This document shows positions 39,866 to 59,761 of a DNA stretch of 64,000 nt, in pieces. The position numbers were made by a program, and so were the translations under genes. Location: the NCBI GenBank assembly GCA_022705745.1, contig JAKJDW010000001.1:1-64000 (forward strand), given 5' to 3'. Origin of the DNA: Patescibacteria group bacterium (lineage in GTDB: Bacteria; Patescibacteriota; Gracilibacteria; Absconditabacterales; Absconditicoccaceae). Positions within the stretch are counted from its first letter, which is position 1. Every line of letters begins with the position of its first letter. Below the pieces are notes generated by a model. The model searched no databases, had not been told where the DNA came from, and saw only the letters and a list, made by a program, of their open reading frames with translations.

Positions 39866-40246
39866 TTAAACTATATTTAGTATAAATATAAATAAAATAT
39901 TTGCAAAAATATTTGAATAAAAGTGAACAAATACCACCATTCCCCCAAAAATGATGTATAATATAGTAAGAATTACTTTTCAATCATCTTGAATTTTTTC
40001 GTGTATATACTCTTCTAATTTGTTGTTACATCTAATCTTTTTGAGATTTTTCTTGGCATGTAACCTCCTAACATAAGCCTTATGTTTAGCTTTACTAGGA
40101 TTATATTTACCTCGTACAGAATTGTTTTTAATTTTATTATTAACTGTCGTATGTGATCTTCAAATTAATCTAGCAATTTCACGCTTAGATTTATTTTGTG
40201 CGAGGTAAATCATTATCAACTCTCTTTCTTCAATTGTTAAGTACAT
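39866..40246 (-). pseudogene. IS30-family transposase, N-terminal fragment, copy 1
   Basis: MYLTIEERELIMIYLAQNKS followed by KREIARLIGRSHTTVNNKIK and NNSVRGKYNPSKAKHKAYVR is the IS30 N-terminal helix-turn-helix that binds the terminal repeats. The frame leaves the IS30 pattern at about residue 90 (YIHEKIQDDG) and continues into unrelated hydrophobic codons, so the DDE catalytic domain is absent. Its 346-bp core (39977-40322) is repeated at 47022-47367. Confidence 0.85.
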
Positions 40247-40322
40247 TAATTTCTCTTGTAAGTTTATAAAGGTAAGAACTATTATAACTATACAAGTGGA
40301 AACTTTCAAATTTTAATTTAGG
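39977..40322. repeat. 346-bp direct repeat, left copy
   Basis: About 99% identical to 47022-47367 (I count four single-base differences). Same orientation. Together they bracket the helicase-nuclease gene. Confidence 0.95.
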
Positions 40323-40806: not shown

Positions 40807-43800
40807 ATGAAAATATTGTTTTTTGATATAGAAGTTACTGCTCAAAAGAAGATTGCTAATATTGGAGCTATAGATCAATATTGAAATTTTGTTTATTCTT
40901 GAAACGATGTTGAGGCTTTTTATAATGAAACCAAAAATTATGATATTTTGGCATGACATAATATTTTGCATCATGATTTAAAATATTTATCAACTACTCA
41001 TAATATCAGTACATCATTTTTGGAAAAACCTGTGATTGATACACTTTGGCTTTCATCATTGATTTTTATTAGAAAACCATATCATAAATTAATAAAAGAA
41101 TATAAGTGATGAAATGTTGATCCAAACTATGAAGATGAATTAGATAGTTTTTTTTTAAGACATCAACCTTGATGTGAAGAAGAAAATAATATTGTCAAAA
41201 ATAATCCTATAAATGACTCTCAATTAAGTCTAGCTGTATTTAATAATTGTGTAGAAGAGTTTGCAAATATCAATTCTAACATGCAACAAATTTTATATAC
41301 ATTATTACATACATCAAAACAATTTTGAACATTTTTTGATTATTTAATAGAACAAAATCAATTTACTCCTAAAAAGATAAACTTAAAAAATGAAATATTT
41401 AAGATACTTAACCCATTAATTAAGAAAGAGTTTTTTGATTTAGAGTTATCACAGATTTTGTCTGAAGAATCAGTTTGTTTTGCATATATTCTTAGATTAA
41501 TAGAACAAAATTTAAATAGAGATATTTCTATAAATCCAGATTGTTCTATTTTACCAGATCGAATTAATTATACTTTAATCAACAATCATAAAGTATTTTC
41601 AAAAATATATAAATACAAAAAATTTAATGCACAAAAAGAATTAAAAAACTGGAATAAAGATTTTACCTTTAGAGAATATGCAAACATTCATTGAGAAAAA
41701 ATAAAACAAGAAGATTTAGTTAATTCATGATTTCATTGAGAAGATTTCATTGCAATTTTGGCGACATGAGGATGAAAATCTCTTTGTTTTCAATTGCCCG
41801 CATTAGCTAGAGCTGAATCTTCATGATTTTTAACACTTGTGATATCACCTCTTCAATCATTGATGGATGATCAAGTTTCAAATTTAAAATATAAATATAA
41901 TAAAACAAATGTTTGAGCTTTACACTCAGCTTTGGATCCATTAACTAAAAAAGAGGTTTGTGAAAAAATTGAACATTGATGAATTGATTTGTTATATCTC
42001 TCTCCTGAAATGCTGAGAAGTCCTAGTACTCAAAGATTACTTTCCAAAAGACATATTGATAGATTAGTTATTGATGAAGCTCACTGTTTTAGTAAGCGAT
42101 GACATGATTTCCGTATTGATTACATGTTTATTGCAGATTTTATTAAAGAGTTATGAAAAGAAAAATCTCAATATTTTAACCCAAGCATAAAAGATATTTC
42201 TATTTCTTGTTTCACAGCTACAGCTAAACAAGAAGTAGTTGAAGAAATAAAAACATATTTTAAAAATCATTTTTGAAAGGAATTAAAAGAGTATAAATCA
42301 ACGGCCAAAAGAGAAAATTTACACTATGAAGCATATAATGTTGAAAATTGAACAAAGAAGTTTGATACACTTATGGAGATATTAGAAAATAGAGTTGATA
42401 CAAAATCATGCATTATATTTACAAGATATACATGACAAAACAAAAGTATGTGAAGGATGTGAGCAGAAAACCTTACTAGAGCTATTAATGAAAGATTACA
42501 ACAAGACTGATACTGACACATCAACGCAGCATTTTTCCATGGTCAATTAGAATGATCAAAAAAAAGAGAGATGATGCAAACATTTATGAGCTGAGAAGTG
42601 AATATTATCGTAGCTACTAATGCATTTTGAATGTGAGTTGATAAATCTGATGTAAGATATGTGATTCATTATGACTTGCCTTCATCATTGGAAAATTATT
42701 TACAGGAAGCTTGAAGGGCTTGAAGAGATTGAAAAGACTCAAACTGTATAATACTTTATACATCTGATGATTTGGATCAAAATTTACAACTAAATCAATT
42801 ATCTCAAATAAAGAAAGGAGAATTGCAAATGTTATTGAAATACATTAAATATCAATTTCAACAAAAAGGTAAAAAAAGAATTATAAATTCTGCAAAAGAA
42901 TTTGTAAAATATGCATGACGAATTTCAGGAGATTTTGAAGAAGAATATACAAACAATAAATCAATGTGGGAAACAAAAATAAGAACTGCATTATGGTTCT
43001 TAGAAAAGCCATTTCCTAAAGAAAATGATTCATGGTTTATTGAGAGAAAATTTAATAGAACAAGAGTTTTTGCAACTGCAAAATGAAAAAAAACTTATGA
43101 TTTAACAGTTGATCAAACGGATGATGATCTTAATAATGCTTTAAAAACTTTAGATGACTATGAACGTAGAGTTATAAACGATATTTATAGCAATATTAGA
43201 ACTTGAAAAGTAATGTCTATAGAAGACCTTCCAAATAAAGTTTGATGGCATATTAAAAGAATTCCTTCTGCAGAATGAACTAAAAGTAAAAAATGAATAC
43301 AAGAATTAGTTGAAATACTAAGAGAACACAACTTAATAGATAAAGATGAAGAAATTTCTTTATCTTTAAATGTTACATGATGACAAAGTTCAGAAAAAAG
43401 ATTCCAAGATGTATATAATTTTTTTGAGGCCATATTTAGTATTTTTTCAAAAGAATTCTGAAATTTTATTGATAAATGATCTGAACTTGTTTTTGATAAA
43501 AAATGAATAAATACAGAATTAACACATATGCTATGAAACACAAGCAATATGGGTGAAATTAATAGTTTTTTATATATATTAAAAAATAGATGATATGTTA
43601 ATATAACATTATGAAATACCATGATTAATTATTTGCCATTTAGTGAAATAAAACAAGAATTTAATGATCAATTGTATATTAGTAATAACTTAATAAAGTT
43701 ACTTTTGGATGAAAATGTTTCAAAAAATCAAAGAGAAAATAAATTCACAATGGATGTTAATTTAAAAATACTTGCAAGAAAATTGTGAGAAAAAATAGGT

Positions 43801-46800
43801 ATAAAAATAACCAATATTCAATTGGAAAATGTTTTAAAACTTCTGCATGAGTTTGATATCATAGGTGTTGAATCTGGTTTATTCTTATATTTTACAAGGT
43901 TTGAAATTGAATGATGAAAGCGTCTCAAAACCCCTACAGATGACTGAAAAGAAAAATATAATAATTTGAAGGAAGAGCATTTTGAATCTCTTTCAGATTT
44001 TTATAAAAACAAAACACAACAAGCACATATTATGGATGAATTTGCTAGAAAAGTTATTGAATATCTCCCTATTAATGCAGTTGAACAATTTGTAAATATA
44101 TTTGTAGATGATTATTTTAATTTGGATTATGAAGGTGAATTTTTGCCAAAATATTTTAAATGAAGAGTAAGTGAAATATCAAGATCAACATCAAAAGCAA
44201 AACATGATGAAATATGGAATGTTTCAGATGAGCAGAAAGAAATTCTTGAGTCTAAAAATAATCTATTAGTCATTGCTTGACCATGATCTGGTAAAACAAA
44301 ATCTTTAGTACATAAAGTTGCCAATTTAGTAATGGAAGAGTGAGTAAGTAAGGATGAATTTCTTCTGCTTACATTTATGAGATCGGCAAAGTTTGAGTTA
44401 AAAAACAGAATTATAAAACTTATTTGAAATCAATGATATGCTTTAAAAATCCACACATTTCACTGATTTGCATATGAGTTGTTGGGAAAAAATCCCTTGA
44501 AAGATGATTATGATAATGAAAATTGAAATAGTGATAATATAATTAAAGATGCTGTAACATATTTAAATGAAAATAAAGATTTACAGTTACCATATAGAGT
44601 AATTATGTTAGATGAGTTTCAAGATATTTGAGGAACATATTTTGGGTTTATTGAAGCAATTAGTAAAAGATCATCTTTTAATGAAAACAAAATTAGAGTT
44701 ATAGCTACCGGAGATGATGATCAAAGTATTATGGAATTTGCATGATGAGACATTCAATATATTCAAAATTTTCAAAAAGAATATAATGCTGATTCTGTGA
44801 TTTTATCTAAAAATTTTAGATCTACTCAGCCATTAATAGATTATACTACAATGTTTATAAAAACTATAAAAAATAGATTAAAACAATGAACTAAATTAAC
44901 ATCATGACGCATTATGGATATTTTTCAATGACAATCTAAAATTGAAGCATGGAATTGTAAATGAAATTATCTTTTTGGAGTAAAAGATGCTCTTGAATCA
45001 ATTAAATCTACAACTAAAAGAGAAACGACAGCGATTATCTGTAATGAAAACGAAACTGTATTACAAATAAATCATATTTTACAAAAAAAATGAATTAAAG
45101 CTCAAATTCTATTATGAGATCAATGATATAAGCTAAGAGATGCTTTGGAGTTGAGATATTTTTTAGAGATTTGTAACGATACTACTTGAGACAAATTAAC
45201 AAAAGAAAATATTTGGGATAAATATAATTCTGTAATTGCGAATTTTTGAGAAAATAAAAACACAGAAACTTTAAAAAAAATAATAAATACAATTATTGAT
45301 ACAAATAGTTCTATCTATCCAAAAATAGTAGAGGACTTTATGATTGATTTTAAAGATGAAGCAGATTTAATTGACAATGAACATCAATTATTTGTCTCAA
45401 CATTTCATAAAGCAAAATGAAGAGAATTTGATAATGTAATTATTTGTTTTGATCCTCATAAAAATTGGAATGAAAAATTTACTGATGATAATACTAGAAA
45501 TAGTAATATAAGGCTTATTTACGTATGAATGACAAGAGCAAAAAATAATCTTATTTTATTGTGAAATACGGATAATAATAGATATTTTAATTTTTTATAT
45601 AACAAATCTCCAATTAAAGAGGAAAAAGTTTATGATAATGAAGATACAAATGAAATTTCAGTAATTACAACTTTATCAGATACATATATATCTTTTAATG
45701 ATGATAAAGTTATTAAAGATCCAATGATATGAGCTGAAATTGATTACAGTGAAAATATTAAAAAATGAAACTGAGTTATAGATTATATATGGGAATGAAA
45801 AGTTATTCAACAAAGTTCAAAAAGCTTGCTGCCATACAAAATAAACAAGTGGCTTAAAAAATGATATTATATAGCATGAACGAAAATATATCAAAAAATA
45901 TTATACCGTCCACGTTGAGATGATAAAGAACATCTTGTATTTCTTTTTGATATTTCTCTAAAAATGTTGCCAACAGAATTTAAAGAAATAGAAGAGGCAA
46001 GAGTTAAAATAAAAGGATTAGAACAACAAATTTCGATAATTCAACAACAAGATTGATTGTCGAATACTAATCTTCAGGACATAATAAAAGAAAGAGATAA
46101 TCAAATACAAATATTACAAGAAAAAACTCAACAATTAGAAAAAAAATTAGAAGCGGCACAGGAAGATATTAAGAATCGTGAAAAGGCCATAGATGATAAT
46201 AGATTAAAGATAAAGGAATTAGAACATAATTTATGAGAGCTCGAAAAAGAGAAAGAAATAGCGAGTTGAAAGATTACAAAATTAGAAAAGAGTTTAGCAA
46301 AAGCTCAATCAGGATGAGATAAAAAAGTAGAAAAAAATTATGAAGACAAATTATTAAAAGCTCAAAATGATTTTAAAAACTTAGACAAAAAATTTAATGA
46401 TATTTATCAGAAAAAATTATTACATGAAGAAAAAAATAAGGAATTAGAAACTGAAAATCAGAATTTAAAAAACGAAAACGCGGAATTGCAAAAGAAAGTG
46501 AGTGATAGTATATGAAGAGATTTTATGTGAGAACCAAAAAAGGCTGATGATTATGTTACATCGTTAATACAATCAGCAAAGACACAGGTTATATTAGTGG
46601 ATCCTTATGTGGATAGTGTAACAATTTCTCGTTTATCTAAAAGATGAAATTGAGTAAAAGCAGTAGTATATTGTTCAAATATCAAATTGTCAGAATGACA
46701 AACTAAAGATGTTTTACAAGATCAAGAAAATAATCCTATCAAAAGTCGTCCTTTGAGAAATTTTCACGATCGTTATCTTATAATTGACAACGATATTTAT

Positions 46801-46911
46801 AGATCATGATCTAGTTTTGATTCTCATCTTTGAAAAAAGGGTACCAATATTTCTAAGGTGCCAAATAAAACTCCAGAGGAGCGATTAAAGGAATTATGAA
46901 TAAAATCTTAA
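40807..46911 (+). CDS. Exonuclease-RecQ-UvrD-PLD fusion, candidate defence protein
   Basis: A single 2,034-residue frame with TGA=Gly. Residues 1-60: DEDD-type 3'-5' exonuclease start, FFDIEVT (D7, E9) and AGHNILHHDL (D57). About 295-640: RecQ-like helicase with ATGGGKSLCFQLPA (K324), IDEAHCFS (423-429) and ATNAFGMGVDKSDV, LQEAGRAGRDG. About 1140-1590: UvrD-like helicase with AGPGSGKTKSL (K1163), LDEFQDIG (1268-1275), DDDQSIMEFAG, SKNFRST, STFHKAKGREFDN and YVGMTRAKNN. About 1735-1900: long coiled coil. About 1915-2025: PLD-like domain with VDPYVDSV and HDRYLIID (H1986, HxRx4D). Two helicases of opposite families plus two nuclease domains suggest processing of foreign or damaged DNA. It lies between IS30 fragments and beside a CRISPR locus. 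Domain calls are by motif; the role is inferred. Confidence 0.88.
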
Positions 46912-47009: not shown

Positions 47010-47291
47010 AAACAATTCACATTTTCAATCATCTTGAATTTTTTCGTATATATGCTCTTCTAATTTGTTGTTACATCTAATCTTTTTGAGATTTTTCTTG
47101 GCATGTAACCTCCTAACATAAGCCTTATGTTTAGCTTTACTAGGATTATATTTACCTCGTACAGAATTGTTTTTAATCTTATTATTAACTGTCGTATGTG
47201 ATCTTCAAATTAATCTAGCAATTTCACGCTTAGATTTATTTTGTGCGAGGTAAATCATTATCAACTCTCTTTCTTCAATTGTTAAGTACAT
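46992..47291 (-). pseudogene. IS30-family transposase, N-terminal fragment, copy 2
   Basis: Same IS30 helix-turn-helix (MYLTIEERELIMIYLAQNKS) as the copy at 40246, ending after EKIQDDG in KCELFKPDGL and a stop. The DDE domain is again missing, and the loss point is the same in both copies. This means the fragment, not an intact element, was duplicated. Confidence 0.85.
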
Positions 47292-47367
47292 TAATTTCTC
47301 TTGTAAGTTTATAAAGGTAAGAACTATTATAACTATACAAGTGGAAACTTTCAAATTTTAATTTAGG
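47022..47367. repeat. 346-bp direct repeat, right copy
   Basis: Right copy of the direct repeat at 39977-40322. It ends 232 bp before the CRISPR effector gene. Confidence 0.95.
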
Positions 47368-47599: not shown

Positions 47600-50500
47600 A
47601 TGTTAAAAACTTTTAAAAACTTTTATGAGGTAAGGAAAACAGCTAGTTTCAAGCTAATTCCTAATAAAATTTATAGACAAATTGAAATGAGTAAAGAACC
47701 TTCAAATTTTAAAGATCTGGGAAAACAATATGTTAATATAATAAATTCTTTATCAGAGTTATTATATGAAGATGAACATGAAGACAATACTGAAGAAGTA
47801 TGATTGTCTACAAACTTATGATCACTTATATCCCAAGATGACCAATTAAAAATTGGAGAAATAACAAAATCTGCAAACAAATCTGTCGAAAATCACGAGC
47901 AAATAATTTTACATTGAGATGAAAAGGATTTTGATAAAAAGGATTTTAATAAGCTTGTTAGAATAAAACATCAATGGATTAAAGAGAACTTTAGAAGTGA
48001 TTGGCATAAAAATAAAGAAAACATTGTTTCTTACAAAACCAATAAAGATTGAAACAGAGTTAAAACAAAAAATTGGACTATTATTTGAAATGTGGAGTTT
48101 TTACAAGTTTTTTTTAAAGACTTTTTAAAAACAGCACTAGAATATTGAAATAATATTATAGAGTTAACCGAATCACAAGAACACGATAAAAGTAGAAATA
48201 GTGATATAAAATTTTTACTACAAAAAATTCAATCTAAGTTACACTTAAATAAAATTTATCAATTATTTGAATGAGAATATATAAATCATAAAAATGATAA
48301 TTCAGATATCGAATATTTAAGAGAGCAACTTAGAGACTTTAAACAAAAAGCTAACAATTGTATAGAAAACTATAAAATTAGTGATTCGTTTTGAATGTTT
48401 ATAGAACACGGAAGTCTTAATTATTATACAAGAAGAAAAACACAAAAAGATTATGAAGAAGAAATTATTAAAAAATCGGAATGATTAAAAAACAAATTTT
48501 ATGGAAATTTATGAGCACTTTATTGAATTGATAAAAATCAACCTATAGAAAATCTTTATAAAGAAATGAAGATTTTTAAAGCAAGTCAAAAAAGTGCTTT
48601 TTTGCAGAGATTACAAAGTGGTATTAATTTTACTAATTTTCAGAAGGAATTTAAATTTATTGATAATAGATGAGATGTTGTTGAAAACTTTAAAATAGTT
48701 TTGTTCTCTGACATAACGGAAGATAGGTATGAAGAAATGTTAAATTTAACCAATCAAATTGAAAAAGAAAAAAATAAAGAATCTAGAAAACAATTAAAAG
48801 AAAAAAGAGGAAAATATTTTCAACATCATCTTAACAAATACAAAAAATTCTGTAATGATTATAAAGATGTGGCAATGGAGTTTTGAAAAAGGAAAGCGGA
48901 AATTATATCATTACAAAGAGAAAAGGTACTCGCAGAAAGGGAAAGATGATACTGATTCTTTGCCAAAGATTGAGAAAACAATTTCTATATAAACACATTT
49001 GATATAGAAAACTCACAACAAGCTTATCATGAACTAATTAACAATAAAAATACAAAGTGAGAAATTGCATATTATATTCTAAGCTCGATAACTTTGAGAG
49101 CATTAGAAAAGCTTTGTTTCTCGGAAAGATCAACCTTTAGTAAATGAAACATAATAAATAAGCTTGATGAAAAGTTTATAAAAATTCAAAATGGAAGTTG
49201 AAGAAAAATCTTTAAAAGCAAGAAAGAACTAGAAGAGGAGAATATCCTTATTGATTTCTTTGTAGAAGTACTAAAACACCAAACTAATTTGAACCTAAAA
49301 TTTAAATCTACTCAATCTATAAACATACTAAAAGAGTGTAAAGATATCGGTGCATTTGAGATTTTATTAAAACAAGAAACATATATATTAGATGAATATT
49401 TTATTTCAAAACAAAATTTTGAAAGTATTTTAGAAAAATATAAGTGAATTTCATATAAAATTACCTCAAAAGACATTGAGAATAACACTAATAAAAGTAC
49501 TTTCTCTAGTTGGTGGAGAGATTTTTGGGAAGAAGAAAATAAAGAAAATGATTATGTATTAAGAATAAATCCAGAATTCAGTATTTCTTTTAGGCTTTGA
49601 GATAAGGAAAAATATAAAAACACATTACCATTTCATAGGAAAAAAAATAATCAATATTTTTTAACTATGAGTTTTTCTCATTCTGCTGATAGAAATTATA
49701 TTAATACTGCCTTTATTAACGAAGAAGATAGAAAACAATCATTACAAGATTTTAATGATATTTTTAATAGAAAGAATAGATTTGATTATATTTATGGTAT
49801 AGATAAGGGAACAAAAGAATTAGTGACCTTATGAATTTTTAAAAAATCAAACAAATGATTGGAATCAGTGAATATTTCTGAAAAAATTCCTGTCTACAAA
49901 ATCACAAAAGATTGATTTCTTCATACTAAAACAACGACAAAAAAACAACCTAAAAAATGAGAACAACCTATTACAATACACACATTAGCTAAAAATCCTT
50001 CCTTGTTTTTAGATGAAATTGATAATCCAAAAATCTTTGAAAAATTAAGTATTACTTCTTGTTTATGAGATTTAACTTATGCAAAACTTATAAAATGAAA
50101 AATTATTCTTAATGCAGATATTTCCACCACCCTTAATTTATACAAAACTACAGCAAAAAGGTCTTTGCATAATGCAGTTACAACATGAAAAATGATATCT
50201 AAACAAGTATTGTATGATAATGAAGAAAATGTTTTCTATTACGAGTATGAAAATAGAGGCATTTTGAATAAAGAAAAAAATTTGTATTGGAAAGATGAAT
50301 TTAATTTTTTGCCTCACAAGGATGAATTTAATTCATTAAAAGAAGAAATAGAGTTTGAATTAAATGAGTATATAAAAGATATAAATTCTGAAGAAGACAT
50401 ATCTATGCAAAAAATAAATAATTACAAAAATGCTGTCTCAGCTAATATTGTATGAATCATTACAGAGTTACAAAAATATTTTGAGGGATATATCTGTTAT

Positions 50501-51073
50501 GAAACCTTAAATGAACAAACAGTCAAAAAGGAATTTGATACTTTTATAGGAAATGTTATAAACGAAAAAATCTATAATAAATTACAATTAAATTTGGAAG
50601 TTCCACCTATTTTAAAAAAGTTTAGAACTGAAGTCTGAAATAAAGATATTATTCAACATTGAAAAATATTGTATGTTAATGAAAAAAACACTTCTTCTGC
50701 ATGTCCTGTATGTAATGAGCAATTATTAAAAAAAGATAAAAATTGAAATCTATCTGATAAGAACGATAATGAAATTTTTAAATTATGATGACATTTAAGT
50801 GATTTTGAAAATAACATGAAGCATTTAACGGATCTAGAATATCAAGAACGGTTAAAAAATAAAAGTTTTGAAAAGGCTAATACTAAAAAATGAAAAATAG
50901 AAAAAAATAAGTATAATTCTTGAATTTTAAATTGAAAATCTTGTGATTATCATATGAAGAAAAACAATTATGGATTTGATTTTATAGAATCTTGAGATGA
51001 TCTCGCAACATACAATATCGCTAAAAAAGCCAAAGAATATCTAGAAAGTTTACCTACTCCTCCTCAACCTTAA
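47600..51073 (+). CDS. cas12a2: Type V CRISPR effector, Cas12a family, Cas12a2-like
   Basis: A 1,157-residue RuvC nuclease. The N-terminus FKNFYEVRKTASFKLIPN matches the start of Cas12a proteins, and the array repeat ends in the Cas12a-type hairpin. RuvC motifs are YIYGIDKGTKEL (D735), YICYETLNEQ (E968) and SGDDLATYNIA (D1133). The 233 residues between the first two are far above the 85 of AsCas12a (D908-E993), and SSACPVC (C1035, C1038) with SCDYH (C1115, H1118) makes a zinc ribbon where Cas12a has its Nuc domain. A large insert instead of the bridge helix and a zinc ribbon instead of Nuc are the marks of Cas12a2, an RNA-triggered nuclease that destroys nearby nucleic acids. Cas4 overlaps its stop. 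Many Gly are TGA. Confidence 0.8.
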
Positions 51074-51618
51074 TGGAACAAAATATCCGTATTTCATCCC
51101 TCAACGACTTTCTTTTCTGTCCAAAGTCTATTTATTTTCACAATCTTTACGAGGATTACGAAAGGCAGGTGTACCAAGATACACCGCAAGTTAAATGAAC
51201 AATAAATCATGAAAACATAGACAACAAGCAGTACTCTACTTCAAAAAACATATTACAGTGATTTGGGATTTATTCTGAAAAATATAATCTTGTTGGGAAA
51301 GTAGATATCTATCAAACAGATAAAAAAACGATTATAGAAAGGAAAACTAAAATATCTAAATTATATCAGTGACAAATTTACCAAGTTTATGCACAATATT
51401 TTTGTTTAACAGAGATGTGATATGAAGTCAAAAAACTCAAAATCCACTCTCTCAGCGACAATAAAATTTATGACATTCCCATCCCCAACAAAGAAGAAAT
51501 TGAAAAATTTGAAAAAGTTTTAGATGAGTTTCGTAAGTTTGATCCAAGTAAACCATTTGAAGCAAATCCAGAAAAATGTAAAAAATGTATATATAGAGAG
51601 CTTTGTGACAGTTATTAG
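51073..51618 (+). CDS. cas4: CRISPR adaptation nuclease Cas4
   Basis: A 181-residue RecB-like nuclease that trims prespacers and checks the PAM during spacer capture. RISSLNDFLFCPKSIYFHNL carries the first Fe-S Cys; LVGKVDIYQT and IIERKTKISK supply the catalytic Asp, Glu and Lys; QGQIYQVYAQYF is the QxxxY motif; and CKKCIYRELC has the last three Cys of the cluster. ATG overlaps the effector stop (TAATG), so translation is coupled. Confidence 0.93.
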
Positions 51619-51660: not shown

Positions 51661-52614
51661 ATGCTTTCAGCCCCAGACTTCAAGGAAAAACAAATTTTAG
51701 TAATAAGTTCTGATGAACGGAAAGGTTTATCATTACGCAACAACAATGTTTTAATAAAAGAGGATGAAAAAATTGTAAATCAAATTTCATGTTCAAAAAT
51801 TTTTTGTATTTTCATTATATGAGATTTTACAATTAGTAGCAAACTAATAGACAAACTTATGAAGTACCAAATCCCAATTTATTGTCTATGATACAACTTA
51901 AAGCCCAAATTTATGATTGGTAATACTCTTCAATGAAATTATATTCTCAGAGAAAAACAATACAATAATCCAAATGAATTGGATATAGCAAAAATGATTA
52001 TAAAAAACAAAGCAACAAATCAAGTGTCTTTATTACAGGAAATTAGATGAAAAACAGATAGTATGAAAGACAGTATTAAAAAAATAAAAGATACAATCAA
52101 AAAAATAGATTCAGCAGATAATGACGATAGTCTCAGATGAATTGAAGGTAGTATTGCAAAATTATTTTTTTCCAATTATTTTGAAGAAATGAAATGGTAT
52201 AGGAGAATGCCAAGAACTAGGAATGATATAATTAATTTTTTATTGGATATCGGTTATTCGTTTTTGTATAATTTTATTGAAGCCAACTTAAACCTTTATT
52301 GATTTGATGTTTATAAATGAGTTTATCACAAACTTTTTTATGAAAGAAAGTCTTTAGTATGTGATTTAGTGGAGCCATTTAGGTGTATTATTGATAAAAA
52401 AATTAGGAAAATGTACAATCTCTGACAAATAAACGAAAAAGATTTCAAGTTTTCAAAATGAGAATATAGTATTTCACGAGAAAAACAAAAACCATATATA
52501 TGAAATTTTCTACAAGCATTATTAGATGAAAAAATGGAGATATTTGCCTATATCAAATGATATTATAGATATATGATGGATCCAAAAAGAGAATTTCCTA
52601 TTTTTACATTATAA
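51661..52614 (+). CDS. cas1: CRISPR integrase Cas1
   Basis: A 317-residue Cas1. RGIEGSIAKLFFSNYFEEMK holds the first catalytic Glu; VYHKLFYERKSLVCDLVEPF holds the His and Glu-Pro-Phe motif (HKxxxxRxSLxxDLxEPFR), as in type V and type I Cas1. Works with Cas2 to insert spacers at the leader end. It starts 42 bp after cas4. Confidence 0.95.
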
Positions 52615-52623
52615 AAAATACAG

Positions 52624-52902
52624 ATGTTAATAGTTTCTTATGACATTAGTAACAACAAACTTAGGACCAGATTTTCTAAATTTTTAGAAAAATATTGAAG
52701 AAGACTACAATACTCTGTATTTGAAATAAAAAATAGTGATAGAATTTTGAATATAATACTTTTGAAAATCGAAAAAACATTTTCAAAGAAATTTGAAATG
52801 ACAGACAGCATTTTAATATTAAACCTATGCTGACCTTGTGAAAAAAAAGTTTATAGATATGGATATGCCGTTCATGAAGAGGAAGAATTAATTTTTGCAT
52901 AA
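52624..52902 (+). CDS. cas2: CRISPR adaptation protein Cas2
   Basis: A 92-residue ferredoxin-fold protein: MLIVSYDISNNKLRTRFSKF with the VxYDI strand and LEKYGRRLQYSVFEIKNSDR, the conserved G-x-RxQxSVFE motif. It bridges the Cas1 dimers. Starts 9 bp after cas1. Confidence 0.95.
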
Positions 52903-53137
52903 ATCTATTGAATTTATCTAAATATTCAGTATCATTGAAAATAATTAATTGATCATTAACATTTTTTATAAAAAACTACAATTGTAGCCGTAAGGTTACT
53001 AGAAATTATGTTATGTATTCTATAAATATGTAAACCTACCATCTTCCTAAAATCAAAAGATGGTCTTATGCTACTTTTCTCGGAGTGATGATCTTCTACG
53101 ATCGCCGAGAAAATAGCATAAATAAGCCAAAAGTGGG
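52903..53137 (+). promoter_or_regulatory. CRISPR leader with a degenerate repeat and a long hairpin
   Basis: About 235 bp between cas2 and the first repeat. At 52976-52987, CTACAATTGTAG copies the hairpin end of the array repeat (CTAC-TATT-GTAG). At 53066-53121 the arms TTATGCTACTTTTCTCGG and CCGAGAAAATAGCATAA form a 17-bp, nearly perfect stem around 21 bases, just upstream of the first repeat. Confidence 0.7.
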
Positions 53138-55265
53138 ATTTAGAAAACATAAAAAATTTCTACTATTGTAGATGCTCAATGGCGCAGCCGTTCATTTTTT
53201 TCAATTTAGAAAACATAAAAAATTTCTACTATTGTAGATTTGACACGCAGATGTCTTCAACTTGCTCATTTAGAAAACATAAAAAATTTCTACTATTGTA
53301 GATAAACGCCGTCTGGGCTTGCGCCAAATCTATTTAGAAAACATAAAAAATTTCTACTATTGTAGATTCATCTTTTTATAATATTATAATATAAATTTAG
53401 AAAACATAAAAAATTTCTACTATTGTAGATTTTGTTTGTCATTTTCTTTCTTTTTAATTTAGAAAACATAAAAAATTTCTACTATTGTAGATTTAAAACA
53501 ATACTTTAATGTTTTGTATCATTTAGAAAACATAAAAAATTTCTACTATTGTAGATTTTTTCATCGTTTTTGTATTTTATAATATTTAGAAAACATAAAA
53601 AATTTCTACTATTGTAGATACGCTCGGTGAGCGTGAACATCTATGAAATTTAGAAAACATAAAAAATTTCTACTATTGTAGATGAGTCTTAGTATCTTTA
53701 AGCTCGTTTATTTAGAAAACATAAAAAATTTCTACTATTGTAGATTCCATGAGAAACAAAATGGAGCTTCGTCACATTTAGAAAACATAAAAAATTTCTA
53801 CTATTGTAGATTTGGTAAAGGATTTTTATCAATCAATCAATTTAGAAAACATAAAAAATTTCTACTATTGTAGATTCAGTTTCGGAAGTGATACATATTT
53901 TTATTTAGAAAACATAAAAAATTTCTACTATTGTAGATATATACCGAATACGTGACCAGCATAAATTTAGAAAACATAAAAAATTTCTACTATTGTAGAT
54001 TTTGATTTCTTTTCCATCGATTTTGGGTCATTTAGAAAACATAAAAAATTTCTACTATTGTAGATACCAAAGAATTATAGACCTGTCTAAGTTATTTAGA
54101 AAACATAAAAAATTTCTACTATTGTAGATGTTAAGCATGCTATAGCCCAGCGGTATTTAGAAAACATAAAAAAATTCTACTATTGTAGATTAAATATATT
54201 CATAATTCTAATTGGTCCAATTTAGAAAACATAAAAAAATTCTACTATTGTAGATTTCAAGAAACTCAATGACAGTTGTAAAAATTTAGAAAACATAAAA
54301 AATTTCTACTATTGTAGATAGAATTTCTTTTGAAGAGAATGGTTATTTAGAAAACATAAAAAATTTCTACTATTGTAGATCTGTAAACAAGTAAAGACAA
54401 AGCAAGCATTTAGAAAACATAAAAAAATTCTACTATTGTAGATAAATAGACCTAAATAAGTCTATAAACATTTAGAAAACATAAAAAATTTCTACTATTG
54501 TAGATGGAATAGTTTCTTAACTAAGTTAGTTAATTTAGAAAACATAAAAAATTTCTACTATTGTAGATTTCAAGATACTACTCAAGCAACTTGTGCCATT
54601 TAGAAAACATAAAAAATTTCTACTATTGTAGATAAAGTCTGGAATCATACTCAGCGTTCGAATTTAGAAAACATAAAAAATTTCTACTATTGTAGATGAC
54701 AGTCCATCACATAATCTCGTGTTCTAATTTAGAAAACATAAAAAATTTCTACTATTGTAGATATTGTATGTTGTTAATTATAATCATTTTATTTAGAAAA
54801 CATAAAAAATTTCTACTATTGTAGATTAAGGGCAGAAAATGAGTAAAAGTAATTTAGAAAACATAAAAAATTTCTACTATTGTAGATGCGAGTCGGTGTT
54901 AGTTGGGTCATCTTCATTTAGAAAACATAAAAAATTTCTACTATTGTAGATAATAAACTATTGACACGATAAAATAATTTAGAAAACATAAAAAATTTCT
55001 ACTATTGTAGATAGATAGCGGTGAATGGAGAGGGTGGGATTTAGAAAACATAAAAAATTTCTACTATTGTAGATATGAACACCTACGAGATATCAATGAA
55101 ATAATTTAGAAAACATAAAAAATTTCTACTATTGTAGATGCTGTATTATCTCCAAACTCTATAGTATTTAGAAAACATAAAAAAATTCTACTATTGTAGA
55201 TCTAAGTGTGTGTAATTTTTTTCAGTCATATTTAGAAAACATAAAAAATTTCTACTATTGTAGAT
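53138..55265 (+). CRISPR. Type V CRISPR array, 34 repeats and 33 spacers
   Basis: The repeat is 36 bp and ends in AATTTCTACTATTGTAGAT, the hairpin that Cas12a-family effectors process themselves. First repeat 53138-53173, last 55230-55265. Spacers are 25-30 bp. Four repeats (17, 18, 21 and 33 from the leader) carry the same T-to-A change (AAAATTC for AATTTC). All repeats are otherwise intact, including the last, so the distal end shows no decay. No spacer was seen to match this window by eye. No tracrRNA is needed for this type. Confidence 0.99.
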
Positions 55266-55630
55266 AAATATCAAGATTCATATATCTAAAATATGTAAAA
55301 TGTTTTTATTTATGAATTTTATCTGATTTAAGGTAAAATACTGTTAAAATTTTTACATAAAAATATTTAATAATAATTTAATATCTATTATTTTGCGGTT
55401 TTTGAAACTACTTATGATATTTTTCAATAAAAGGATTTCTCTGTATGCTCACTTCGTTCACTTAATTGAAATGACAAGTTTCTCTTGAAATGATAATTCA
55501 TGCTTTATTTACCAACATAAACCAACAAAAAAACTAATTTTCAATTGAAAAACTAAGAAAGATTAATACACATTGAGTTGATAAGTTTTTTTTGTTGTTA
55601 TTTTTTATATTAATATTCATTTCACAAAAA
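55266..55630. other. Intergenic region after the array
   Basis: AT-rich with no recognisable gene. Contains inverted runs such as tcacttcgttcactt near 55448. The ileS promoter should lie here, but no clear box pair is seen. Confidence 0.5.
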
Positions 55631-58600
55631 ATGAGTCAGAAAGAATTAATCGATAATTTAACCAGATATTGGAAAGAACATAAAATTTTTCAAAAATCTA
55701 TTGATCAAAGATCTGACACTTTGGAAGCGATCACTTACGATTGACCACCTTTTGCTAGTGGAGAGCCACACTTTTGACATGGTTTAGTAGGAGTAATGAA
55801 AGACCTTGTATGAAGATACAAGACCATGAAATGATACAAAGTAATCAGAGATCGAGGGCGAGATTGTCATGGTTTACCAGTAGAAAAAGCTGTAGAACAA
55901 AAATTATGATTGGATGGAAAAAAAGATATAGAAGAAAAATTGGGGATTGAAAAGTTTACTCAAGAATGTAGAGCTTATGTTAGCAATGTTAGCGATGAAT
56001 GGAATAAATTTGTAGACCAGACATGAAGACGAGCAGACATGGAAAACGCTTACATGACCATGAATCTAGATTTTATGGAGTCTGTAATAAATGTTTTTGA
56101 TAATCTATATTCAAAAAATCTAGTATACCAATGATTCAACATCCAATGGTACTGTCCTTCTTGTGCTACTGCTTTATCCAATTCTGAAGTAAATGAAGGT
56201 TATGAAGACAAGCAAGATCCAGCTATCACTATAAAATTTCCTTTGTACAACAAAGATCAAGAACAATTGGATAAATATGAACATTCATCAGATGGAGCTA
56301 CAAATGTAGTTTGTTGTGTAATCAAAAGAGATGATAAATTTTTGATATGATATCACAAAAAATGACAAAAATATGTGTTCCCTGGTGGGAAAATAGAAAA
56401 ATGAGATAGTATCGAAGAAACCGTAATCAGAGAGGTTAAAGAAGAAACTTGAGTAGAGGTGAAATCTCAAAAAACGATCTGAGAATTCAAAGAAATATTA
56501 AAATGAAATATCTGGAATTTGATTTATGTAGAAACTGAAATTGGATGAGAGCCACAAAATATGGAACCTGACAAAACTACTCATTTCCAACGAGCAGAAA
56601 TCATAGATTCTGAAAACGAGTTGGGGATGGCTATAAAAATAGAAAATACAATAATAGATGATGCAGAAGAAATAATAAATCAGTTTTATGATTTGTATAC
56701 CTACAAAAACAATTTTGCTGGACAAATAACACCAGACAAAGACATAAATGTTTTGGCTTGGACGACTACCCCTTGGACCTTGCCTTCAAACAGTTTTTTG
56801 GCTGTATGACCAGGTATTAAATATGTTTTGGTATTTGATAAATCTAGCCAAGAATATTATGTGGTAGCTAAAAATATGTTGAGCAAATATTATAAAAATA
56901 AGGATGAATATCTTTTGATAAACAAATTTTCATGAGAAGATATGAAATGAATTTTTTACAAACCATTATTTGAATACATCAATCAAAGCGATATTTCTGA
57001 TGAGTATAAGGAACAATATTTCCAAATAATTTTATGAGATTTCGTAAGTACTGAGGACGGAACTGGAATTGTTCATATTGCTCCGTCATTTGGACAAGAG
57101 GATTTTGAGGTAGTGGCAAATATTTTTCCTAGAGAAAATGCAAAAGATTGGTTGTTTTTACCAGTTGATGACTATGGAGAGTTTACAGATGAGGTTGGTG
57201 ATTATGAATGAATAGTAGTGTATGATGCAAATAAAGATATTGTCCAAAGATTAAAGAATGAGAGAAAGCTAATATTCCAACAGTCTTATACTCACTCATA
57301 TCCGCATTGTTGGAGATGTCATGCTCCACTGATTTCAAAAGCTATGGATTCTTGGTTTATCAAAGAGCCTGAATTGAAAAAAGAAACAACAAAAAATGCT
57401 GAAAATATTTGATTTGTGCCAGAATCTGTGAAAAAGAGATTTATTGATACGCTAGAATCTGCTCCTGATTGGAACTTGAGCAGAAAAAGATATTGGGGGT
57501 CTCCGATCCCTGTATGGCAAAATGTTGAAAATCCTGAAGATCATTTTTCTATATGAACGCTTGATGAGTTGTATTATCTGACTAGAACTGGATCTAAAAA
57601 TCTGACCAAAAATATTTTTGTTAGGCATGGAATAACGGATTTTAACGAACAGAGAAGATATGACTGACTTTGAGATTCTGTATTAACTGAAGAATGACAA
57701 AAACAAGCACAAGAAATTGCAGATCAGCTTCAATATCTAAAAGAGGAAAAGTCTGATATTGTTTTTATAATTTCTCCGCTTCAAAGAGCTTGGCAAAGCA
57801 TCAAACCTACTTTCTTGGATTTTTTCTGAGAAGAAAAAACTGAGGAAATGGAAAAAAAATATTTTGAATTACATAAAAAATATATAGTTCTTTTTGAAGA
57901 TGGCTCTCTGCAAAAATATTTACAAGGAAGCGATGAACAAAATATTTTCCAATTGGATGAACAAGTGTTTATTGATTGGAGATTTACCGAACACTATGGA
58001 AAATCATCTCAAGGAGAATATGAACCTTGCGTCTACAACAACCGATCTGATTATGATAAACCAATTTCAAAAGATGGAGAAAGTGTAAATGAAGGTTGCA
58101 AAAGGGTTAAAAATTCTGTTCAATACCGAAACAATAAGTTTGTAAACCAGGTTTTGATATATGTATCTCACAACGATACAATTGCAATGGCAAGAAAAGC
58201 TTTCCGTAACTTTGACTATGCGAGTAAAAGAAAAGCTTTTTTAACAAAAAACTGAGGAATTCAAGTTCACTATCGAGATAATGACACACAAACTGAGGTT
58301 GATCTACACAGACCTTATGTAGATAATTATCGAGGAATGAGAGATGGAAAAACTTACAAAAGAATTCCGGAAGTGATGGATTGTTGGTTTGAGTCTGGAT
58401 CTATGCCGTTTGGACAGGTGTGATACATTAGAAGAAAAGATGGAACTACTAGATCACATAGACCTTTGATATATCCTGCAGATTGGATTATGGAATGACT
58501 AGATCAAACAAGATGACGATTTAGAGTAATGCATGTTTTAGGAAATGCTATGATGTGAAAAAATTCTTTTGATAATGTAGTAATAAACTGACTTATCTTG

Positions 58601-59761
58601 GCTGAGGATGGTCTAAAAATGTCCAAAAGTCTAAAAAACTATCCAGATCCTGAATACTTGTTTTTTAGATATGGAACTGATGCTTATAGACTTTATATGC
58701 TATCCTCCCCTTCAGTAAGAGCTGAACCAATGAAGTTTTCAGAAAAATGAGTAGATCAGATATTCAAAGACTTTACAACAGCATTGAGCAATGCTTATAA
58801 GTTTTTTGAAACTTATGCAAAAGTAGATAAATTTAAGGCTAATAGTACTAATTTGTATTTTATGAGGCATGGTAGTGCTAGTGGATTTGAATTCAATGAT
58901 CCTTTGACAGACGAATGAATAGAAAAACTTACTACAGAAGATTTTGCTACAAAAATACTTAGATTGGAATTAGATAAAATCTACTCCTCTACTTGAAAAA
59001 GAGCAACACAAACTGCTGAAATCATACAAAAAATTTACAAAGACAGATTGGACAAAGATATTGAAATCATAAAAGAAGAAAATTTACGACAAGACAATAA
59101 AGATAAGATCGAAACAACATACCAAGAAATTTTGAAAAAAGAAGATTGAAACAATGTTTTGATTTTATCTCACGAAGTAAATTTTGAACCTTTGCGACAA
59201 AGTCTTTATGGAGAAAAAGTATCTTTAAGTAAGTACGAAATTGTTAAATTACCAAACTGCCAAATCACTAACGACTTGGATAAATGGATTTTGGCTAGTT
59301 TACACGAGCTAGGTTTGGAAGTAGAAGAAGAAATGAATAAATACTATTTAGATTCTGCAACAAAATTGGTACTTGGATTTGTAGATAAACTAACAAACTG
59401 GTATATCAGAAGATCTAGAAGAAGATTTTGGGCATCTGGAATGGGACAAGATAAAATATCTGGTTACAATACCTTTTTTGAAGTTTTAAGTACTTTTGTA
59501 AAAATAGCCGCTCCATTTGCACCATTCATAAGTGAGAGGATTTATTTACAGCTACAAGAATTTACTAATAAATGAAGAGTAGAAGGAGAATCTGTGCATC
59601 TAAAGCACTTCCCAGTATCTTCTCAAATATATATTGATAAAAAATTATTATCAGAAATAGAATTAGTTAGAAAAATCATATCATTGTGATTGTTTGTTAG
59701 ATCCAAAAACAACATAAAGATCAAACAACCATTATCAAAAATGGAAATTAAGATTGATTAA
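55631..59761 (+). CDS. ileS: Isoleucyl-tRNA synthetase with Nudix and two histidine-phosphatase inserts
   Basis: A 1,376-residue class I synthetase. [13 protein letters not shown] (HIGH-like, H47-H50), [31 protein letters not shown] (editing), [10 protein letters not shown] and LKMSKSLKN (KMSKS, about 996-1001) place it as IleRS. Three extra domains sit inside: a Nudix hydrolase at about 225-330 ([10 protein letters not shown], then REVKEETG), a histidine phosphatase at about 658-855 (FVRHGITDF with H666, [18 protein letters not shown]) and a second at about 1073-1210 ([10 protein letters not shown] with H1080, [19 protein letters not shown]). Catalytic residues look intact in all. The C-terminus ends at [13 protein letters not shown], shorter than usual. 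The inserts may remove damaged nucleotides or adenylates; that is inference. Confidence 0.9.

What the first reader, a model, noticed from the sequence alone, without database searches (positions are those of the whole stretch)
40807..46911. One-gene DEDD exonuclease + RecQ + UvrD + coiled coil + PLD machine
Two complete helicases of different superfamily branches and polarity usually work as separate proteins; here both lie in one 2,034-residue frame with a nuclease motif at each end. The gene stands alone between transposon fragments next to a CRISPR locus, a place typical of defence genes. I know single-protein helicase-nuclease defence systems, but not this domain order.
Basis: partly seen in the sequence, partly recalled or inferred. 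Interest (0 to 1): 0.88.

Follow-up and report, generated by a model that had tools for sequence, protein, structure and literature searches.

The report
Two-motor DNA helicase with exonuclease domain
One very large gene in a recoded (TGA = glycine) bacterium makes a DNA-cutting domain and two DNA-unwinding motors in one protein; the layout is shared by an unnamed gene family found patchily across many bacterial phyla, often beside anti-virus genes, so it is probably a stand-alone DNA-processing defence enzyme, and this copy carries an extra tail found on no relative examined.

Summary
Window 40807-46911 is one 2,034-codon frame under code 25 (92 TGA): DnaQ-like DEDD exonuclease, RecQ helicase, UvrD helicase, small C-terminal domain, coiled coil, PLD-like domain.

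The interpretation needs correcting. (1) Exonuclease-RecQ-UvrD is not a new order. It is a single-gene family (1,500-1,900 aa) in Bacteroidota, Bacillota, Pseudomonadota, Campylobacterota, Cyanobacteriota and others, on plasmids and viral contigs, annotated only as 'RecQ family ATP-dependent DNA helicase'. (2) RecQ and UvrD share 3'-5' polarity. (3) Both nuclease ends are non-canonical: the ExoIII histidine is asparagine in 49 of 52 relatives, and the PLD motif is HxR, not HxK. (4) Only the coiled-coil/PLD tail is special; it is a mobile module also found on RhuM/ORF6N proteins and on another Gracilibacteria helicase.

The defence reading is supported circumstantially. The gene is accessory (36/200 and 32/198 genomes in two groups), lies in non-housekeeping regions, and recurs beside restriction enzymes, CRISPR, DISARM and Druantia; here it precedes a type V-A CRISPR locus. 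No partner is constant.

Best explanation: a stand-alone helicase-exonuclease acting on invading DNA (about 0.5). New variant of a known kind.

The parts
40807..46911 (+). Whole gene, 2,034 aa under code 25 (TGA=Gly)
40807..41316 (+). DEDD (DnaQ-like) exonuclease domain, res 1-170: D7xE9, GHN52xxxxD57, D78TL, N132xPxxD137 (Asn where DEDDh enzymes have His); 22-aa insertion about res 110-131
41317..41682 (+). Linker, res 171-292; in most relatives holds a C...CxxxCxxC metal-site-like cysteine cluster, absent here
41683..42885 (+). RecQ SF2 helicase core, res 293-693 (TGGGKS, DEAH, QEAGRAGRD)
42886..44196 (+). Inter-helicase region, res 694-1130; no RecQ zinc cysteines
44197..45606 (+). UvrD-like SF1A helicase, res 1131-1600 (AGPGSGKT, DEFQD, GDDDQS, VGMTRA)
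45607..45951 (+). Small family-wide C-terminal domain, res 1601-1715, fold unidentified
45952..46476 (+). Coiled-coil-like region, res 1716-1890, absent from relatives
46477..46908 (+). PLD-fold domain, res 1891-2034, single motif HDRYLIID-x6-GS (H1987); homologous to C-termini of RhuM/ORF6N proteins and of a NERD-UvrD helicase
39977..40322 (-). Left copy of 346-bp direct repeat (IS30-type transposase N-terminal fragment)
47022..47367 (-). Right copy of the same 346-bp repeat, 99% identical
47600..51073 (+). Cas12a (context)
51073..51618 (+). Cas4 (context)
51661..52614 (+). Cas1 (context)
52624..52902 (+). 92-aa ORF in the Cas2 position; Cas2 by position, size and sequence look, not scanned
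   Evidence: inference
53137..55265 (.). CRISPR array, about 34 repeats ATTTAGAAAACATAAAAAATTTCTACTATTGTAGAT

Best explanation
It is a member of an unnamed, horizontally spread, single-gene accessory family, most likely an anti-invader (phage/plasmid DNA) helicase-exonuclease. Proposed working: the protein loads on ends, gaps or forks of foreign DNA; the RecQ (SF2) and UvrD (SF1A) motors, both of 3'-5' type, unwind it in series, and the DEDD domain trims the exposed strand from its 3' end. In this Gracilibacteria copy a coiled coil is expected to pair two molecules and so bring together two half-sites of a Nuc-like PLD fold, which would bind or cut DNA. Shown here: domain content, conservation, accessory distribution, defence-rich neighbourhoods. 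Inferred: substrates, polarity, direction of degradation, dimerisation, self/non-self choice. The PLD domain may bind rather than cut.
For: All DEDD acids and both sets of helicase motifs are conserved in essentially all of 53 relatives, and the fusion is kept as one frame of about 1,570-1,850 aa in most of the 68 genomes hit in two groups, so the parts work together. The gene is accessory: 36/200 genomes in one genus, 32/198 in one family, one strong hit in 380 Patescibacteria. Its neighbourhoods are accessory and defence-rich: 127 PADLOC models hit in 129 neighbours against 2 in 127 neighbours of canonical recQ; with same-genome control stretches 48 models against 15. Named neighbours: type IV restriction enzymes adjacent on the same strand in three loci (gaps 9, -81, 154 bp) and 775 bp away in a fourth; type I R-M right after L124 and near L041; DISARM DrmABC; DruE; CRISPR I-D; V-A CRISPR in the window. 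No partner gene is constant among 74 loci, as expected for a one-gene system. Solved proteins of like build: S. aureus DinG (exonuclease + SF2 helicase; top fold match) and SauUSI (PLD + helicase restriction enzyme; Z 10.7).
Against: No experiment. Most loci carry no recognised defence system within 5 kb. PADLOC models are redundant, so model counts overstate numbers of genes. The canonical-recQ control mainly shows accessory against housekeeping context; the same-genome control shows a smaller excess. Several copies sit in plasmid partition/replication regions (Aliarcobacter, Bacteroides), fitting element maintenance. ExoIII His is Asn, and PLD Lys is Arg (K-to-R is a classical inactivating change in human PLD1/2; own knowledge), so either nuclease could be weak or dead. 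No self/non-self discriminator is identified.
Confidence: 0.5

Rival explanations
1. Mobile-element maintenance or recombination enzyme: a plasmid/prophage-borne end-resection and repair machine (a one-protein counterpart of RecQ + RecJ/UvrD or of AddAB) that serves the element rather than defending the host.
For: Many members on plasmids and on IMG/VR contigs; Aliarcobacter copy next to parAB and a replication gene; Bacteroides copy a few kb from SSB and ParA genes. WRN-like exonuclease + RecQ order is typical of repair enzymes.
Against: Chromosomal members sit beside restriction and other defence systems; no constant replication or partition partner among 74 loci; patchy presence.
Confidence: 0.27
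2. Helper of neighbouring defence systems: processes DNA ends made by Cas12a or restriction enzymes (degrading cut invader DNA or making prespacers), not a defence on its own.
For: Directly precedes a V-A locus here; tight same-strand pairing with type IV restriction enzymes in three loci; type I restriction genes directly after the L124 member.
Against: Partners differ from locus to locus and most loci have none; in the window the gene is cut off from cas12a by one copy of the 346-bp repeat.
Confidence: 0.15
3. Chance accessory cargo of ordinary chromosomal DNA repair: a RecQ-UvrD fusion with a housekeeping role.
For: RecQ and UvrD are housekeeping repair families.
Against: Absent from about 5 of 6 genomes in two well-sampled groups; neighbours differ sharply from those of canonical recQ.
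Confidence: 0.08

Closest known systems
Unnamed 'RecQ family ATP-dependent DNA helicase' proteins of 1,500-1,900 aa (e.g. WP_022275194.1 Bacteroides, WP_151029446.1 Aliarcobacter, WP_207249163.1 Thiothrix)
   Same: Full-length homology over residues about 1-1720, same order DEDD-RecQ-UvrD-small C-terminal domain, single gene
   Different: They lack the coiled coil and PLD tail; most carry a C...CxxxCxxC cluster missing here. Window copy is a long, deep branch.
WRN (Werner) and other exonuclease-RecQ proteins
   Same: DEDD exonuclease in front of a RecQ core
   Different: No UvrD half in WRN (own knowledge); here no RecQ zinc cysteines. PDB sequence match to WRN covers the helicase part only.
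S. aureus DinG
   Same: N-terminal DnaQ-fold exonuclease followed by an SF2 helicase; top structural match of residues 1-273
   Different: XPD-like helicase rather than RecQ; no SF1 half (own knowledge)
SauUSI (type IV restriction enzyme)
   Same: PLD nuclease fold plus SF2 helicase in one protein; PLD fold match Z 10.7
   Different: PLD at the N-terminus with a canonical motif, specificity domain, no DEDD, no UvrD (own knowledge)
Gabija GajB / DpdF (PADLOC models)
   Same: UvrD half hits GajB models, RecQ half hits DpdF models
   Different: Matches cover only the helicase cores; no GajA- or Dpd-type partner noticed beside the gene
Gracilibacteria NERD-UvrD-coiled coil-PLD helicase (L201, L215)
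   Same: Same coiled-coil plus HDR PLD tail behind an SF1 helicase
   Different: NERD instead of DEDD-RecQ; encoded with a PD-(D/E)XK neighbour

Membership tests
Exonuclease-RecQ-UvrD single-gene family | Co-linear homology through exonuclease, RecQ, UvrD and C-terminal small domain | tested here: met
   25-31% identity over about 1-1720 to relatives of several phyla
RecQ helicase | RecQ core with conserved motifs above curated cutoff | tested here: met
   TIGR00614 261.5 bits, cutoff 219.8; motifs invariant
RecQ helicase | RecQ-Ct zinc-binding cysteines (present in many but not all RecQ proteins) | tested here: not met
   0 of 53 members have 4 Cys in the corresponding stretch
UvrD/PcrA SF1A helicase | SF1 helicase motifs | tested here: met
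   PF00580 and PF13361 above cutoffs; motifs invariant
DEDDh exonuclease | DnaQ fold with four acidic residues | tested here: met
   D7, E9, D57 in 51/51, D137 in 51/52; fold Z 9-14
DEDDh exonuclease | ExoIII histidine (HxxxxD) | tested here: not met
   Asn in 49 of 52 aligned members
PLD/HKD nuclease | PLD fold | tested here: met
   NucT Z 12.4, Nuc Z 11.8
PLD/HKD nuclease | HxKxxxxD catalytic motif | tested here: not met
   HDRYLIID: Arg for Lys, conserved in the tail family
Gabija | GajA OLD-type ATPase-nuclease next to GajB | tested here: inconclusive
   Between 46911 and cas12a at 47600 lies only the repeat fragment; upstream lie a T2SSF gene and, further off, an N_methyl (pilin-like) gene, with unidentified ORFs between; OLD was not searched by model throughout the window
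Anti-phage defence system | Protection against phage | not testable with these tools
   Only genomic context:

The most novel reading that the evidence does not exclude
A widespread but unnamed one-gene immune system in which two same-polarity motors of different superfamilies drive an unusual DEDD exonuclease (Asn instead of the general-base His), and in which Gracilibacteria have added a swappable coiled-coil/PLD module, shared with RhuM proteins, as a second DNA-acting head.
Probability: 0.35. Interest if true: 0.78.

Novelty: new variant of a known kind. Interest (0 to 1): 0.52.

Why it matters
If right, a gene present in roughly one in six genomes of two unrelated bacterial groups and labelled merely 'RecQ' is an overlooked single-gene defence candidate whose standard-code relatives can be cloned and challenged directly. 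It would also be a natural test of what two same-direction helicases do in one chain, and of whether a DEDD site with Asn for His still cuts. The tail shows one module moving between RhuM/ORF6N proteins and two different Gracilibacteria helicases, hinting at what the little-understood RhuM C-terminus does.

Tried and rejected
PADLOC names such as DpdF, GajB and PsyrT were rejected as identities, since they match only the helicase cores. The idea that the gene is a recent import from a Bacteroidota donor was rejected: deep long branch and highest TGA-glycine fraction of the genes compared. A mixed alignment of family C-termini and PLD tails misaligned, so the PLD domain was folded alone and the 1601-1715 domain was left without a structure. 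My early thought that this domain resembles HIRAN was not supported by Pfam. An empty-site test failed: the sister genome lacks both the gene and Cas12a, and its pilus and aaRS flanks lie on different contigs. A viral-contig scan with one RhuM tail found nothing. Literature searches found no paper on the exonuclease-RecQ-UvrD fusion; the held library is partial.
Full report
Observation. ORF 40807-46911 on the + strand is open for 2,034 codons only under code 25 (92 TGA). Recoding is supported by homology: of 70 well-populated TGA columns, 29 have Gly as majority residue and 15 are at least 90% Gly, including Walker-A glycines of both helicases.

Domains. Pfam and NCBIfam give RecQ (293-693) and UvrD (1141-1584). 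Residues 1-170 have no Pfam hit, but an alignment of nine relatives shows invariant D7, E9, GHN-D57, D78TL and D137; its profile finds TREX1-like exonucleases in the PDB (E 3e-4) and T7 polymerase exonuclease (E 0.011); an AlphaFold model (pLDDT 82) matches S. aureus DinG (Z 14.2), ExoI, DnaQ and TREX1 homologue Plex9.1, although plain Foldseek E-values were weak (best 1.5e-3). The tail 1880-2034 folds as a PLD domain (pLDDT 83.5; NucT Z 12.4, Nuc 11.8, SauUSI 10.7, BfiI 9.8). FAM83B, a PLD-like domain not known as a nuclease, matches about equally well, so the fold alone does not show catalysis.

Unusual catalytic residues. In 53 aligned members the four DEDD acids are kept but the ExoIII His is Asn in 49 of 52. 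The PLD motif is H-D-R-x4-D-x6-G-S; Arg replaces Lys throughout the tail family. Both replacements are conserved, so they may be functional variants, but activity cannot be assumed. In most relatives the linker holds C...CxxxCxxC; window, Aliarcobacter, Campylobacterales and Scytonema members lack it.

The family. Full-length relatives occur on plasmids of Bacteroides, Aliarcobacter, alphaproteobacteria, cyanobacteria and Thiothrix, on viral contigs and in genomes of many phyla. In the held genomes 36/200 of one genus and 32/198 of one family carry it, mostly as one frame of about 1,570-1,850 aa. In Patescibacteria it is rare: the window is the only strong hit among 380 genomes, and one family member (G005) has a RecQ half without UvrD at a contig edge. 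The window protein branches deeply beside the Bacteroidota/Bacillota/Campylobacterota clade on a long branch (placement unsure).

The tail. Nearly all other full-length members end 76-171 aa after UvrD motif VI (one 307, and one truncated at a contig end); the window runs on for 458. The tail's PLD part matches C-termini of RhuM/ORF6N proteins of Bacteroides plasmids (35-44%). In the same Gracilibacteria family it ends a 1,298-aa NERD-UvrD helicase (L201) and a RhuM protein (L202); a contig listed in IMG/VR carries the same NERD-UvrD-tail protein with a PD-(D/E)XK neighbour. So it is a module joined independently to different proteins.

Context. The gene lies between two direct 346-bp copies of an IS30-type fragment, followed by cas12a-cas4-cas1-(cas2) and a 34-repeat array. 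The genome of the same genus lacks gene and cas12a. Neighbours of relatives: 129 proteins matched 127 PADLOC models, 127 neighbours of canonical recQ matched 2. A stricter comparison with stretches of the same genomes gave 48 against 15, in 130 and 135 proteins; the test side includes three type IV restriction enzymes and Septu PtuA/PtuB. Among 74 loci, a type I/IV restriction-like cluster occurs within 5 kb at six (one member, L051, is rather a PrimPol-helicase by PADLOC) and RhuM at four; nothing is constant. In annotated plasmids the gene is near DISARM (Scytonema), DruE (Pseudanabaena), type I R-M (Allochromatium) and CRISPR I-D (Thiothrix). Other plasmid copies have no such neighbour.

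Mechanism. From family knowledge RecQ and UvrD both move 3'-5'; a 3'-5' DEDD exonuclease beside them would consume one of the exposed strands from its 3' end. This is inference. The tail's coiled coil could pair single-motif PLD halves as in Nuc or BfiI; also inference.

Verdict. A sound observation of a real machine; the order is not new, the defence reading is plausible and circumstantial, and the tail is the novel element.

Noticed in passing
window 55592-59758 (+): Class I aminoacyl-tRNA synthetase (Val/Ile/Leu type by Pfam) with NUDIX and histidine-phosphatase domains inserted; the same full-length layout is found at 65% identity in the sister genome G001 and about 53% in G003.
   Followed up: partly
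L201:935-5765 and L215:584-5387 (code 25): Two-gene unit in Gracilibacteria: PD-(D/E)XK protein plus NERD-UvrD-coiled coil-PLD helicase; L215 lies on a contig listed as viral.
   Followed up: partly
L051:14870-18827: Family gene followed at 4 bp by RhuM and then by a PrimPol-type protein, all on one strand.
   Followed up: no
L138 (Tritonibacter, 1,896 aa): A relative with a different, unidentified extension of about 150 aa after the C-terminal domain.
   Followed up: no
L237:8343-9410: Sister genome G001 carries a Cas4/PD-(D/E)XK-like protein (by reading the sequence) at the pilus flank where the window has its island.
   Followed up: no
L244, L248, L258: Type IV restriction enzyme in tight same-strand pairing with the family gene in three genomes (gaps 9, -81, 154 bp).
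   Followed up: partly
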